Source: Pyrococcus kukulkanii (GTDB lineage: Archaea; Methanobacteriota_B; Thermococci; Thermococcales; Thermococcaceae). From it: a DNA stretch of 64,000 nucleotides. The DNA is taken from NCBI RefSeq assembly GCF_001577775.1, contig NZ_CP010835.1, forward strand, positions 1,550,001 through 1,614,000, read 5' to 3'. The notes below the pieces were generated by a model that worked only from the letters and a program-made list of their open reading frames with translations, did not search any database and was not told where the DNA came from. The position numbers were made by a program, and so were the translations under genes. Positions 20,550 through 64,000 of the stretch are shown piece by piece (the first letter of the stretch is position 1; each line of letters begins with the position of its first letter).

Positions 20550-22302
20550 GTTTCCGTAGAACTGAATAGTGTGGAAAGGAGAACGGGAGAGGTTCCTAAG
20601 CCCTTGAGAAAGTATCCTGCGTTTCCGTAGAACTGAATAGTGTGGAAAGAACACAGCAGTAGCACTAACCCCAGGAACAAACACCAAGTTTCCGTAGAAC
20701 TGAATAGTGTGGAAAGTGAGTATTATCTTGCTGGAAAGAACATTGAGGGCTATCAGGGTTTCCGTAGAACTGAATAGTGTGGAAAGATTGGGATGGTAGT
20801 GATGTTGCTCTTGGATCCTTTGGTTTCCGTAGAACTGAATAGTGTGGAAAGATTATCAACACTTTGCCACTAGCTCTTAGCACAAAGCCTGTTTCCGTAG
20901 AACTGAATAGTGTGGAAAGGGTTTCAATTGTCTCCATAACCTCCTCCTCAGCTCTCGTTTCCGTAGAACTGAATAGTGTGGAAAGTAATATTGAACACGC
21001 TTGTTCTCAAGCCATAAGTGTTTCCGTAGAACTGAATAGTGTGGAAAGAAAAAGACCGATATACCAGAAAATACCAATAAGAATTCGTTTCCGTAGAACT
21101 GAATAGTGTGGAAAGTGGAAACAATTCTACCCACATTCAATTCTTCCGCCTAAACTGTTTCCGTAGAACTGAATAGTGTGGAAAGTAGTCATAGACGAAG
21201 GCGGGACAATACTGTTCTCAAGACAGTGGAGATGTTTCCGTAGAACTGAATAGTGTGGAAAGTGTATGCTATTTTGATCTCCTCGTTGTCAATGGCCCGT
21301 TTCCGTAGAACTGAATAGTGTGGAAAGAGTCGAGCCCGAGAGTGTGGAAGAGGCAAAGCTCTTTAGCAGTTTCCGTAGAACTGAATAGTGTGGAAAGCGT
21401 TATTATCCTCCTTAGTCCGCTTGAGAATTCGTAAGTTTCCGTAGAACTGAATAGTGTGGAAAGATTGTTGGCGGTTTTTGGTGGACACTATTTTGGCGTG
21501 TTTCCGTAGAACTGAATAGTGTGGAAAGTACGCTTTCGGCTCAAGTATCAACCTTTCTACTTTCTCTCGTTTCCGTAGAACTGAATAGTGTGGAAAGGAA
21601 ATCGCTTGACGCTTTTGTTGCAACTCTCCATAGTGTTTCCGTAGAACTGAATAGTGTGGAAAGCTTTCCGGGAATTCGCCTACCATTTTTTCTTCCAGTG
21701 CACTCCGTTTCCGTAGAACTGAATAGTGTGGAAAGACGGAAACAAGTGGGTAAGCCGAATAACTATGAGGGTGTTAAGGGAGTTTCCGTAGAACTGAATA
21801 GTGTGGAAAGTTTTCACTAATCCTCCATGAGCTTCTCAAAAAGCAACTTTCCGGTTTCCGTAGAACTGAATAGTGTGGAAAGGTAAACAGCATGCCAATT
21901 ACGTCCCCTTCCTCCAAATCGTTCCTGGTTTCCGTAGAACTGAATAGTGTGGAAACCCGAAAGCTCTTCGGCTAAACTCCTAAGAACCTCATCATCTGTT
22001 TCCGTAGAACTAAATAGTGTGGAAACCTCCAAAGCTCAAAACCCATTTCTTCTAACTTTCTTAGTTTCCGTAGAACTAAATAGTATGGAAACGAGAAGAT
22101 GCCAAGTACCTCGACCTGAAGGACGTGAAGCTGTCTGTTTCCGTAGAACTAAATAGTGTGGAAACTGAGACCTCACCACTGGATGTAGGGGTTAAAAAAG
22201 GTTTCCGGTTTCCGTAGAACTGAATAGTGTGGAAACCCCTTCCTACCCTTTATTGCTAGAAGGACCTTCATCTGTTTCCGTAGAACTGAATAGTGTGGAA
22301 AG
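20550..22302 (+). CRISPR. CRISPR array, 26 full 29-bp repeats with 25 spacers
   Basis: The repeat begins GTTTCCGTAG, continues AACTGAATAG and ends TGTGGAAAG (29 bases). Repeat starts: 20550, 20621, 20688, 20758, 20823, 20891, 20957, 21020, 21087, 21157, 21234, 21299, 21369, 21435, 21500, 21569, 21635, 21707, 21782, 21854, 21928, 21998, 22064, 22137, 22208, 22274. Spacers range from about 34 to 48 bases and appear unrelated to each other. The first 20 repeats are uniform. Repeats 21-25 end in AAAC instead of AAAG, and repeats 22-24 also carry GAACTAAATAG (repeat 23 has GTATGG). The decaying end is therefore on the right and the leader on the left. Apparent open frames across the array translate the repeat (VSVELNSVE or HTIQFYGN) and are not genes. 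No cas gene occurs in the window. Confidence 0.98.
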
Positions 22303-57835: not shown

Positions 57836-57903
57836 CAAAATCAGCCCTGGCTGTATTCCTCATCGCCCACGGCTCAGGCCGTAGGGAAAGTTCATCATAA
57901 GCC
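57836..57903 (-). ncRNA. C/D box sRNA (dual guide)
   Basis: On the minus strand: C box ATGATGA (57898-57892), 14-base guide (57891-57878), D' box CTGA (57877-57874), 8-base spacer, C' box CGATGA (57865-57860), 15-base guide region (57859-57845), D box CTGA (57844-57841). It sits in the leader of the phosphoesterase gene, whose ribosome binding site starts 7 bases beyond the D box. The D' guide pairs with GCCGTAGGGAAAGT-like targets, likely rRNA. Ends are approximate. Confidence 0.85.
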
Positions 57904-62508: not shown

Positions 62509-62985
62509 ATGAGTTGGACAACTCCCAAGAAGGCTATAATGCTTTCAGCGGTTGCTGAGGGAGGAACGAAGCTCAACGCTTTTGACAATGCCCTTCTTAA
62601 AATGGGAATAGGAAATGTTAACTTGGTTAAGCTCAGTAGCGTTATTCCCGCCCACATAGAATGGCTCGATGAGTTGCCAAAGAACATTCCAATAGGAATG
62701 CTCCTCCCAACTGTTTACGCCCACATAGAGAGCGATGAGCCAGGCTCAACGATAAGTGCGGCACTGGGCGTTGGCATAAGCGAGGGCAATGAAGGGGGAT
62801 TAATCTACGAGTACGCTGGCTACTGCACGAAGGAAGAGGCTGAAGAGATGGTAAAGAAGATGGTTGAAGAGGGGTTTAGGGTAAGGGGATGGAAGCTTAA
62901 AGAATTCAAAGTTGTCTCGGCGGAGATAACGGTTAAAGATAAGCCAGCTGCCGCAGTTGCCGCTGTTATAATGTTCCCCTACTGA
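62509..62985 (+). CDS. pdaD: Pyruvoyl-dependent arginine decarboxylase
   Basis: 158 residues from ATG 62509 with GGAGGGGTG upstream. The self-cleavage site is VKLSSVIPAHI (S43-S44): S44 becomes the pyruvoyl group of the alpha chain. IPIGMLLPTVYAHIESDEPGSTISAALGVGI and AVAAVIMFPY are family-diagnostic. It makes agmatine for polyamine synthesis. Convergent with the PP-loop gene, overlapping 20 bases. Confidence 0.95.
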   Translation: MSWTTPKKAIMLSAVAEGGTKLNAFDNALLKMGIGNVNLVKLSSVIPAHIEWLDELPKNIPIGMLLPTVYAHIESDEPGSTISAALGVGISEGNEGGLIYEYAGYCTKEEAEEMVKKMVEEGFRVRGWKLKEFKVVSAEITVKDKPAAAVAAVIMFPY

Positions 62986-63760
62986 AGTTCTCTATAACCT
63001 TTTTAACTTCGCTAAGAACTTCTTCATTGCAGTTCCAGCACATTACCTCAAAGCTCGGCACCCTCACACTTACCCTCACCTTGTGTTTCCTAGCTATTTT
63101 GCTTACCTCGTAGTTTACCTTGAATGCGAGATCCATGAGGTTTTCTGTAATTCTCTCATCTTCGTCTATGTACTGTAAGGGGCAACCCTCTCTCCACTGT
63201 CTCCTCCTTCCATGCTCGTACATTCTGTAGGGTTTAATTCCAGCTTCTTCAGCCAGCTTTTCAACTTCTGAAGCTTTATATCTGATTAGAGGCCTGAAAA
63301 TCGGTATTCCTATCTTTGGAATTTCGCACAATCGAATGTCCCCAGGGCATTGGTCGAGCAGGGTTCCCACTATTTTATCGTTGGCGTTGTCCCCCTTCGC
63401 TATGTAAGAAAAGCCGTTATTTAGAGCGAACCATTTGGCGTTCTTTAGCATGACCCTTTTGCAGTGCACGCATATCGGTCCCTTCCTCCCAACGGCGTCT
63501 TTGAGAAGGCCCTCGGTTATGTCTATGAGGTAGTGCTCAACTCCAAGCTTCTTTGTGAACTTCATTCCCCATCTCAAAGCCTCGGGCCAGCTCCATTTGT
63601 GAAAGAACGTTAGAGCAGAAACTTTGAATCCAGCTTCTTTTAATATGTACAGGGTTAAGCTTGAGTCTTTACCTCCTGAGAACATGACAACTATCTTCTT
63701 TTCAATAATTTTTGTTTTCTCTCCGAATTTTCTTATCTCTCTTACGACATCATCAAGCAT
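62966..63760 (-). CDS. PP-loop ATPase, adenine nucleotide alpha hydrolase family
   Basis: 264 residues. SGGKDSS (28-34) is the PP-loop for ATP adenylation. Cysteine pairs PICVHCK and MCWNCNE, plus a further CPL cysteine, suggest zinc or sulfur-transfer chemistry. WSWPEALRWGMKFTKKLGVEHYLID belongs to the tRNA thiolation-like/amidotransferase group of PP-loop proteins. No ribosome binding site before ATG 63760, so a leaderless or structured leader is possible (see the hairpins at 63.8 kb). Exact substrate unknown. Confidence 0.82.
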   Translation of the reverse strand: MLDDVVREIRKFGEKTKIIEKKIVVMFSGGKDSSLTLYILKEAGFKVSALTFFHKWSWPEALRWGMKFTKKLGVEHYLIDITEGLLKDAVGRKGPICVHCKRVMLKNAKWFALNNGFSYIAKGDNANDKIVGTLLDQCPGDIRLCEIPKIGIPIFRPLIRYKASEVEKLAEEAGIKPYRMYEHGRRRQWREGCPLQYIDEDERITENLMDLAFKVNYEVSKIARKHKVRVSVRVPSFEVMCWNCNEEVLSEVKKVIENFSRGTL

Positions 63761-63812
63761 GAAAAAAGAACCGCCGGCGGGGTTAAAAGGGTTTGGGGGC
63801 CATTTGTGTTCT

Positions 63813-63863
63813 GTCGGCCCCCTGGGGGTCCCGACGTCATCGCAACCCTCAGTACTCGTCGGG
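63813..63863 (-). other. GC-rich leader with two mutually exclusive hairpins
   Basis: The shared arm CCGAC (63831-63835 on the plus strand) can pair with GTCGG (63813-63817), enclosing a C5/G5 stretch, or, extended to CCCGACG (63830-63836), with CGTCGGG (63857-63863), enclosing 20 bases. A minus-strand TATA-like tttataatt (about 63867-63875) lies just upstream, so a transcript towards the PP-loop gene would carry both. The region is far more GC-rich than the AT-rich flank after 63870. It may be a structured RNA or attenuator; no known family recognised. Confidence 0.4.
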
Positions 63864-63875
63864 CAATTATAAATC

Positions 63876-64000
63876 GCTTTACTCGTATTAAAATTTTGCC
63901 AGAAACGTTTTTAAATAACATTATTTAGACCCAATAACACTTACAATAAGTATATCAATTACATAATAATTTAAAATAAAATACCACCTATAAAATTAGT
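63876..64000. other. AT-rich intergenic end, no gene seen
   Basis: About 125 bases dominated by A and T, with several TATA-like elements (for example tttttaaataac near 63910). Together with 63761-63875 the gap from the PP-loop start to the window edge is about 240 bases. No open frame with a ribosome binding site, tRNA or C/D box element was seen. Confidence 0.6.

What the first reader, a model, noticed from the sequence alone, without database searches (positions are those of the whole stretch)
63813..63875. Mutually exclusive hairpins in a GC-rich leader before a PP-loop gene
One arm can pair either with a near or a far partner, the architecture of attenuators or riboswitches. It stands out in an AT-rich gap and lies after a minus-strand TATA element. 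A partial D'/C'-like CTGA...CGATGA occurs inside the larger loop. GC-rich islands in hyperthermophile intergenic DNA often mark structured RNAs.
Basis: partly seen in the sequence, partly recalled or inferred. Interest (0 to 1): 0.5.

Follow-up and report, generated by a model that had tools for sequence, protein, structure and literature searches.

The report
Known archaeal small RNA gene, sRk28
The two-hairpin stretch is a conserved small RNA gene of heat-loving archaea that was reported before as sRk28 with no proven function, and the comparison made here says it is probably a separate gene rather than an on/off switch at the start of the enzyme gene beside it.

Summary
It is the ortholog of P. 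abyssi sRk28, already seen by Northern blot and primer extension (PMC3124441) and as an orphan small transcript in T. kodakarensis (PMC4247193). A covariance model hits 77 of 94 genomes of the window's family (two of the 77 degenerate) and none of 21 others of the phylum. Two hairpins, P1 and P2, each hold one pair with recurrent compensatory changes. Another pairing that excludes P1 (GGGU/ACCC) is kept in 48 of 48 sequences but without covariation, so pseudoknot or switch stays open. The leader interpretation is weakened: the RNA precedes the PP-loop gene only in the 8 same-genus loci of 52; in 39 of the other 44 it is divergent from an unrelated operon. PP-loop orthologs far from the RNA have TTTTAA-type elements 27-30 nt before the start codon (16 of 20), as do 8 of 8 linked ones, so the gene probably has its own leaderless promoter. 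The PP-loop protein is not QueC. Best reading: an independently transcribed, trans-acting structured RNA with unknown partner.

The parts
63795..63865 (-). sRk28 RNA core (first base by homology with the published P. abyssi 5' end; last base of P2 63795)
   Evidence: cmsearch with R1: 85 bits at 63865-63792; the P. abyssi match begins at 527798, the published 5' end
63857..63863 (-). P1, 5' strand CCCGACG
   Evidence: pairs with 63830-63836; 99.2% of cells paired; one pair seen as C-G 36, G-C 17, U-A 1 of 54
63830..63836 (-). P1, 3' strand CGUCGGG
63837..63856 (-). P1 loop AGUACUGAGGGUUGCGAUGA; AGU and GGGUUGCGAUGA invariant
   Evidence: invariant columns of A1, 48 sequences
63823..63829 (-). 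linker ACCCCCA; its ACCC can pair with GGGU of the loop (63845-63848)
   Evidence: standard pairs in 48 of 48 sequences, no change on both sides
63816..63822 (-). P2, 5' strand GGGGGCC
   Evidence: pairs with 63795-63801; one pair seen as G-C 30 and C-G 22 of 54
63795..63801 (-).
63886..63893 (-). TTTTAATA, probable TATA box of the RNA, 29 to 22 nt before the G of GCCCG
   Evidence: sequence; TATA-like hexamer starting at -25 to -29 in 36 of 44 loci outside the genus (no shuffle control)
63783..63788 (-). TTTTAA, probable TATA box of the PP-loop gene, first base 28 nt before its ATG
   Evidence: such an element at -27 to -30 in 16 of 20 unlinked and 8 of 8 linked orthologs
63762..63767 (-). 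T6 run just before the PP-loop ATG, possible end of a 100-nt form
   Evidence: in P. abyssi T5 at +74 to +78 and T6 at +96 to +101 against published 70 and 100 nt bands; inference
62966..63760 (-). PP-loop ATPase, 264 aa; neighbour, not thought to be part of the RNA's unit
   Evidence: Pfam QueC hit covers residues 22-82 only; TIGR00364 30.9 bits against cut-off 150.3

Best explanation
The element is the sRk28 gene of this genome: a small RNA gene with its own promoter, transcribed on the minus strand from about 63865 and ending after the P2 hairpin, with a possible longer form ending at the T run before the PP-loop ATG. It is not the leader of that gene, which most likely starts from its own leaderless promoter between P2 and the ATG. 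The RNA most likely acts in trans: P1 and P2 are a scaffold, and the nearly invariant P1 loop and the ACCCCCA linker, perhaps brought together by GGGU/ACCC pairing, are the working surface for a protein or ligand not yet known. Shown here: conservation, the two hairpins, changing gene neighbourhoods, promoter-like elements. Shown by others: transcription, 5' end and growth-phase dependence in P. abyssi, an orphan transcript in T. kodakarensis. Inferred: trans action, the working surface, the 3' ends. The confidence given is for the separate RNA gene; the particular mode of action is nearer 0.35.
For: Conservation: strong BLAST hits in 52 of 61 family genomes (101 genomes searched); CM hits in 77 of 94 family genomes and 0 of 21 others of the phylum, two of the 77 degenerate (G033, G116). 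Covariation: percentage paired, both-sided cells and score above all 500 shuffles and all slid registers; on a tree of the neighbouring c1 protein (42 of the 52 loci) the P1 pair changes at least 3 times and the P2 pair at least 5 times. Context: PP-loop gene downstream in 8 of 52 loci, all one genus; c1 divergent in 39, c1 downstream on the same strand in 1, no c1 within 1.5 kb in 4. PP-loop promoter element kept without the RNA: 16 of 20, against a mean of 0.53 and a maximum of 3 in 500 shuffles. In this genome and G006 the DNA upstream differs from that of other loci of the genus, yet a TATA-like element is at the right distance. Published: P. abyssi 5' end 527798 coincides with the model match; in T. 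kodakarensis an orphan small transcript whose downstream gene has its own TSS.
Against: Phok et al. list no promoter for sRk28 in P. abyssi and propose that it derives from an mRNA leader; Jager et al. cite it as lying within a 5'UTR in P. abyssi. The block between P2 and the ATG (AACCCCGCCGGCGGTTCTTTTTTC in 7 of 8) is nearly invariant in the genus, more than a plain promoter needs. Two covariation measures (number of pairs with both-sided change, number of pair types) do not exceed the shuffles, and only 2 of 14 pairs covary. No partner was found; rRNA complementarity is at chance level. The RNA is lost or decayed in several lineages.
Confidence: 0.72

Rival explanations
1. Cis-acting leader: in Pyrococcus the RNA is the 5'UTR of the PP-loop mRNA and controls it by attenuation or as a preQ1-like riboswitch, the small RNA being the terminated product (reader; Phok et al. 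2011).
For: RNA start 100-104 nt before the ATG in 8 of 8 loci of the genus; T runs before the ATG fit the 70/100 nt bands; an alternative hairpin competes with P1; nearly invariant block before the ATG; 5'UTR position reported for P. abyssi (cited). One locus outside the genus, L018, has the RNA 160 nt upstream of c1 on the same strand.
Against: Linkage to the PP-loop gene in 8 of 52 loci, one genus; the gene has a conserved leaderless-type promoter element of its own; the protein is below the QueC cut-off (30.9 against 150.3) and a protein above that cut-off lies elsewhere in the genome (169.9 bits); no Rfam preQ1 match at E up to 10; orphan transcript in T. kodakarensis.
Confidence: 0.16
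2. By-product of a bidirectional promoter: a TTATAA, palindromic by itself, shared with the divergent c1 operon drives a stable RNA without a function of its own.
For: c1 starts 32-88 nt upstream on the other strand in 36 of 52 loci; a TTATAA remains next to c1 where the RNA is lost (G027, G033, G035, G110, G118, G119, G123).
Against: Near invariance and compensatory changes; in the window's genus the RNA is kept at another place with another promoter.
Confidence: 0.06
3. Modification guide RNA: an unrecognised C/D or H/ACA guide using the GAUGA or ACA elements.
For: GCGAUGA in 58 of 58; RACA after the P2 5' strand nearly invariant.
Against: CUGA in 3 of 58; no Rfam guide RNA match above threshold at the element; no contiguous rRNA complementarity above shuffles.
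Confidence: 0.05

Closest known systems
sRk28 of Pyrococcus abyssi and Thermococcus kodakarensis (PMC3124441, PMC4247193)
   Same: Same RNA: the model match in G001 begins exactly at the published 5' end 527798 and lies inside the published region; PP-loop gene downstream in both.
   Different: The 2011 paper read it as derived from an mRNA leader and akin to the preQ1 riboswitch; the wider comparison here argues for a separate RNA gene.
preQ1 riboswitches (Rfam)
   Same: Small RNA with a possible pseudoknot; a QueE-like gene lies within 1.5 kb in 34 of 52 loci.
   Different: No Rfam match at E up to 10; no constant downstream gene; PP-loop protein below the QueC cut-off.
sscA (sRk33) and Hgc RNAs of hyperthermophiles
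   Same: Small RNAs found by GC composition in AT-rich genomes (sscA; Hgc recalled).
   Different: No Rfam match of these families to the element.

Membership tests
sRk28 RNA | Position, strand and 5' end of the P. abyssi RNA coincide with the orthologous match | tested here: met
   G001:C1:527727-527798:- against published 5' start 527798, region 527697-527833; G001 taken as P. abyssi because these coordinates fit
sRk28 RNA | Sequence and two-hairpin structure shared across Thermococcales | tested here: met
   the published figure itself was not seen, only its legend
sRk28 RNA | Transcript of 70/100 nt in this very genome | not testable with these tools
   no RNA data for this genome
preQ1 riboswitch | Match to a preQ1 covariance model | tested here: not met
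   cmscan of 63700-64000 at E up to 1 and of 63780-63880 at E up to 10
preQ1 riboswitch | Lies before a queuosine or archaeosine gene | tested here: not met
   PP-loop protein below the QueC cut-off; no constant downstream gene
preQ1 riboswitch | Binds preQ1 or preQ0 | not testable with these tools
   needs in-line probing or calorimetry
attenuator / cis leader | Same downstream gene in relatives | tested here: not met
   8 of 52 loci, one genus; co-transcription itself not testable here
attenuator / cis leader | Mutually exclusive conserved hairpins | tested here: inconclusive
box C/D sRNA | C, D', C' and D boxes | tested here: not met
   CUGA in the P1 loop in 3 of 58; no Rfam match above threshold at the element
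H/ACA sRNA | Pocket complementary to its target and ACA about 14-16 nt from it (recalled) | tested here: inconclusive
   no contiguous rRNA complementarity above shuffles; split pocket pairing was not modelled

The most novel reading that the evidence does not exclude
sRk28 is a stand-alone, two-state RNA sensor of the Thermococcales: P1 and the competing GGGU/ACCC hairpin are alternative folds set by a growth-linked ligand (perhaps preQ0, given the QueE-like gene near it in 34 of 52 loci), and the RNA acts in trans instead of on a downstream gene.
Probability: 0.1. Interest if true: 0.7.

Novelty: already known. Interest (0 to 1): 0.38.

Why it matters
sRk28 is on record as a putative preQ1-type riboswitch (2011, repeated 2014). 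The comparison here weakens the two grounds for that label, the QueC-like gene and the leader position, and leaves a nearly invariant family-wide RNA with no assigned role and no match in Rfam 15. It offers a structure and a family alignment for knock-out and pull-down work in T. kodakarensis.

Tried and rejected
D'/C' element: rejected. K-turn in P1: considered by hand only; with P1 in register one A faces GAUGA, so no tandem G-A pairs. Rfam: no match at E up to 1; the five weak hits (E 0.41 to 6.2: frameshift elements, a plant-virus pseudoknot, a fragment of sR41) are below their gathering scores. Guide function on rRNA: best contiguous duplex score 29 against a mean of 27.65 and a maximum of 32.5 over 30 mononucleotide shuffles, one genome, 16S-23S region only; tRNAs and mRNAs were not tested. 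Coupling with the PP-loop gene by co-occurrence, compiled by hand for the 74 genomes at least 90% complete and at most 5% contaminated: both present 61, RNA only 4 (G010, G015, G113, G120), gene only 5 (G110, G118, G119, G123, G126), neither 4 (G024, G027, G033 with a relic counted as absent, G035); the four double absences are all in group g6, so I do not count this as evidence. Losses: next to c1 the RNA is decayed, deleted or replaced in G024, G027, G033, G035, G043, G110, G118, G119, G123; G126 and G037 gave no c1. One search (BLAST over 19 genomes) found nothing but had no positive control. RNAalifold on A1 finds P1, adds 11-13 with 22-24, prefers 38-41 with 45-48 and does not find P2; P2 rests. 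A2 is fitted to the model and leans towards its structure; A1 (MAFFT) misaligns the P2 3' arm in some rows and gives 96.7% there.

Full report
What is there. On the minus strand, 63865-63792 matches a covariance model built from 48 distinct relatives, the window's own copy among them, with 85 bits; it is the only match in the window at E up to 10. The stretch is 63.5% GC in a window of 44.6%, next to a gap of 20.9%. Folding energy alone is unremarkable, so conservation carries the argument. The window lies in genome G000 of group g1; G001 of the same group is taken to be P. abyssi because the published coordinates of sRk28 fit it, hence g1 = Pyrococcus.

Identity. In G001 the match is 527727-527798 minus. 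Phok et al. 2011 (PMC3124441; parts 1-5 of 8 read; figures not held) list sRk28 in region 527697-527833 with a primer-extension 5' start at 527798, Northern bands of 70 and 100 nt, little or no RNA in stationary phase, conservation in all species that they compared except T. sibiricus, and a potential pseudoknot. They compared it with the preQ1 riboswitch because the adjacent PAB1992 is QueC-like. Jager et al. 2014 (PMC4247193; passages only) found it in T. kodakarensis as a growth-phase regulated orphan transcript whose downstream gene has its own TSS; they cite other work for a 5'UTR position in P. abyssi, which I did not see. So the RNA is known. A full-text search for the name listed 7 papers, these two and five whose titles concern plant self-incompatibility or plant gene families, not opened. 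In passages of two further transcriptome papers (PMC5316973, PMC6640164) the string sRk does not occur. Rfam has no match (E up to 1, five chance-level hits at E up to 10).

Structure. BLAST found 52 strong loci; 48 distinct sequences were aligned (4 duplicates dropped; A1). P1 and P2 pair in 97.9% of cells, above all 500 shuffles (mean 91.8) and all slid registers, as are the both-sided cells (35) and the score; the number of covarying pairs (2) and of pair types is not above the shuffles. On the model-fitted alignment of 58 loci (54 distinct) 99.5% of cells pair. P1 pair 8-31 occurs as C-G, G-C and U-A; P2 pair 49-66 as G-C and C-G. On a quick tree of the c1 protein (42 of the 52 loci; for two of them c1 was taken from elsewhere in the same genome; 16 of 38 inner branches unsure) these need at least 3 and 5 changes, so they are not one inherited event. 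Only 2 of 14 pairs covary because most of the RNA does not vary. GGGU in the P1 loop and ACCC after P1 can pair in 48 of 48, as can CGA with UCG inside. As a 23-nt hairpin this is matched by 0.6% (C-G type) and 1.3% (G-C type) of shuffles, P1 with its loop by 0.2% and 0.4%. Among six sequences folded, P1 is in the minimum-energy fold of 4 at 37 C and 2 at 85 C, the alternative in 1 and 4; the window's own copy has the alternative at 37 C and P1 at 85 C. A pseudoknot on top of P1 and a second fold that excludes P1 are both possible.

Context. Of the 52 loci, 8 (all g1) have the PP-loop gene downstream; 36 have the c1 start within 150 nt upstream on the other strand, 3 farther, 1 has c1 downstream on the same strand, 4 have no c1 within 1.5 kb. 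One c1 and one c2 protein were scanned and match no NCBIfam or Pfam family at E up to 0.001; the third gene of that operon, within 1.5 kb in 34 loci, resembles QueE but stays below the NCBIfam cut-offs (best 59.6 bits against 206.1). Genes downstream vary. The divergent c1 arrangement is found in groups g2 to g6, so it is probably the older one (inference).

Promoters. Outside g1, 36 of 44 loci have a TATA-like hexamer starting 25-29 nt before GCCCG (no shuffle control). In G000 and G006 the upstream DNA differs from that of the other g1 loci, yet TTTTAATA sits at -29. For the PP-loop gene the 28 orthologs whose loci fetched were examined (77 of 94 family genomes have one): 16 of 20 not linked to the RNA and 8 of 8 linked ones have a TTTTAA-type element 27-30 nt before the start codon, against a mean of 0.53 and a maximum of 3 in 500 mononucleotide shuffles of the 20. 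The four misses are all in g6, with unsure start codons. The simplest reading is a leaderless mRNA with its own promoter, placed directly behind P2 in Pyrococcus. Published band sizes fit ends at T5 (+74 to +78) and T6 (+96 to +101), before the ATG at +103 in P. abyssi; that is an inference.

The PP-loop protein. It hits the QueC models only over residues 22-82 (Pfam) and 24-82 (TIGR00364, 30.9 bits against a cut-off of 150.3); LarE and TtuA models score higher, 42.7 and 39.9 bits, also far below their cut-offs. A protein above the QueC cut-off lies at G000:C1:1188237-1188881 (169.9 bits). So the QueC link that suggested preQ1 does not hold.

Distribution and loss. CM hits in 77 of 94 family genomes, none in 21 others of the phylum (stricter filters, weak matches can be lost). 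Two of the 77 are weak: G033, a decayed copy with its downstream gene in place, and G116, which lacks the 3' strand of P1. Next to c1 the RNA is decayed, deleted or replaced in nine genomes (G024, G027, G033, G035, G043, G110, G118, G119, G123). The RNA is thus strongly kept but dispensable. Co-occurrence with the PP-loop gene is weak and confounded by ancestry (Tried and rejected).

Mechanism. I favour a trans-acting structured RNA: own promoter, own ends, no constant gene beside it, invariant loop and linker. The partner is unknown; rRNA pairing is at chance level in the one genome tested. The leader reading stays possible for Pyrococcus alone, where a block with the palindrome CCGCCGGCGG (63771-63780) before the ATG is conserved in 8 of 8. 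CCCCGCCGGCGGTT occurs once exactly in the genome, once with one mismatch and six times with two; the reversed control pattern once.

Noticed in passing
window 63771-63780: Perfect 10-nt palindrome CCGCCGGCGG inside a block conserved in all 8 g1 loci between sRk28 and the PP-loop ATG; possible operator or RNA element, unexplained.
   Followed up: partly
L099:95-163 (G033), L103 (G027), L106 (G024), L104 (G043): Decayed or lost copies of sRk28 at the c1 position in g6 genomes; G024, G027, G033 and G043 also gave no PP-loop hit, G043 being 77% complete.
   Followed up: partly
L105 (G035), next to c1: Where sRk28 should be, an ORF beginning MVVREKLYTLKQASEILGVHPKTIQKWDREGKIR follows the retained TTATAA; it looks like the first gene of an IS607-type element (recalled, not searched), so the RNA may have been lost by insertion.
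   Followed up: no
L107 (G118), just past the retained TTATAA: In place of sRk28 a different hairpin, GGGCATC...GATGCCC; replacement or chance.
   Followed up: no
window 20550-22302: CRISPR array, 26 repeats matching Rfam CRISPR-DR41, minus strand.
   Followed up: no
window 57839-57902: C/D box sRNA sR19, minus strand.
   Followed up: no
L037:771-886: Sub-threshold HgcC RNA match (31.4 bits, gathering 50) some 600 nt from sRk28 in a g6 genome.
   Followed up: no
L002 and L003 (G000, G006), upstream of the RNA: A 267-aa ORF on the other strand separates the RNA from the MBL-fold gene that ends 37-47 nt before it in 5 of the 6 other g1 loci: a local insertion.
   Followed up: no
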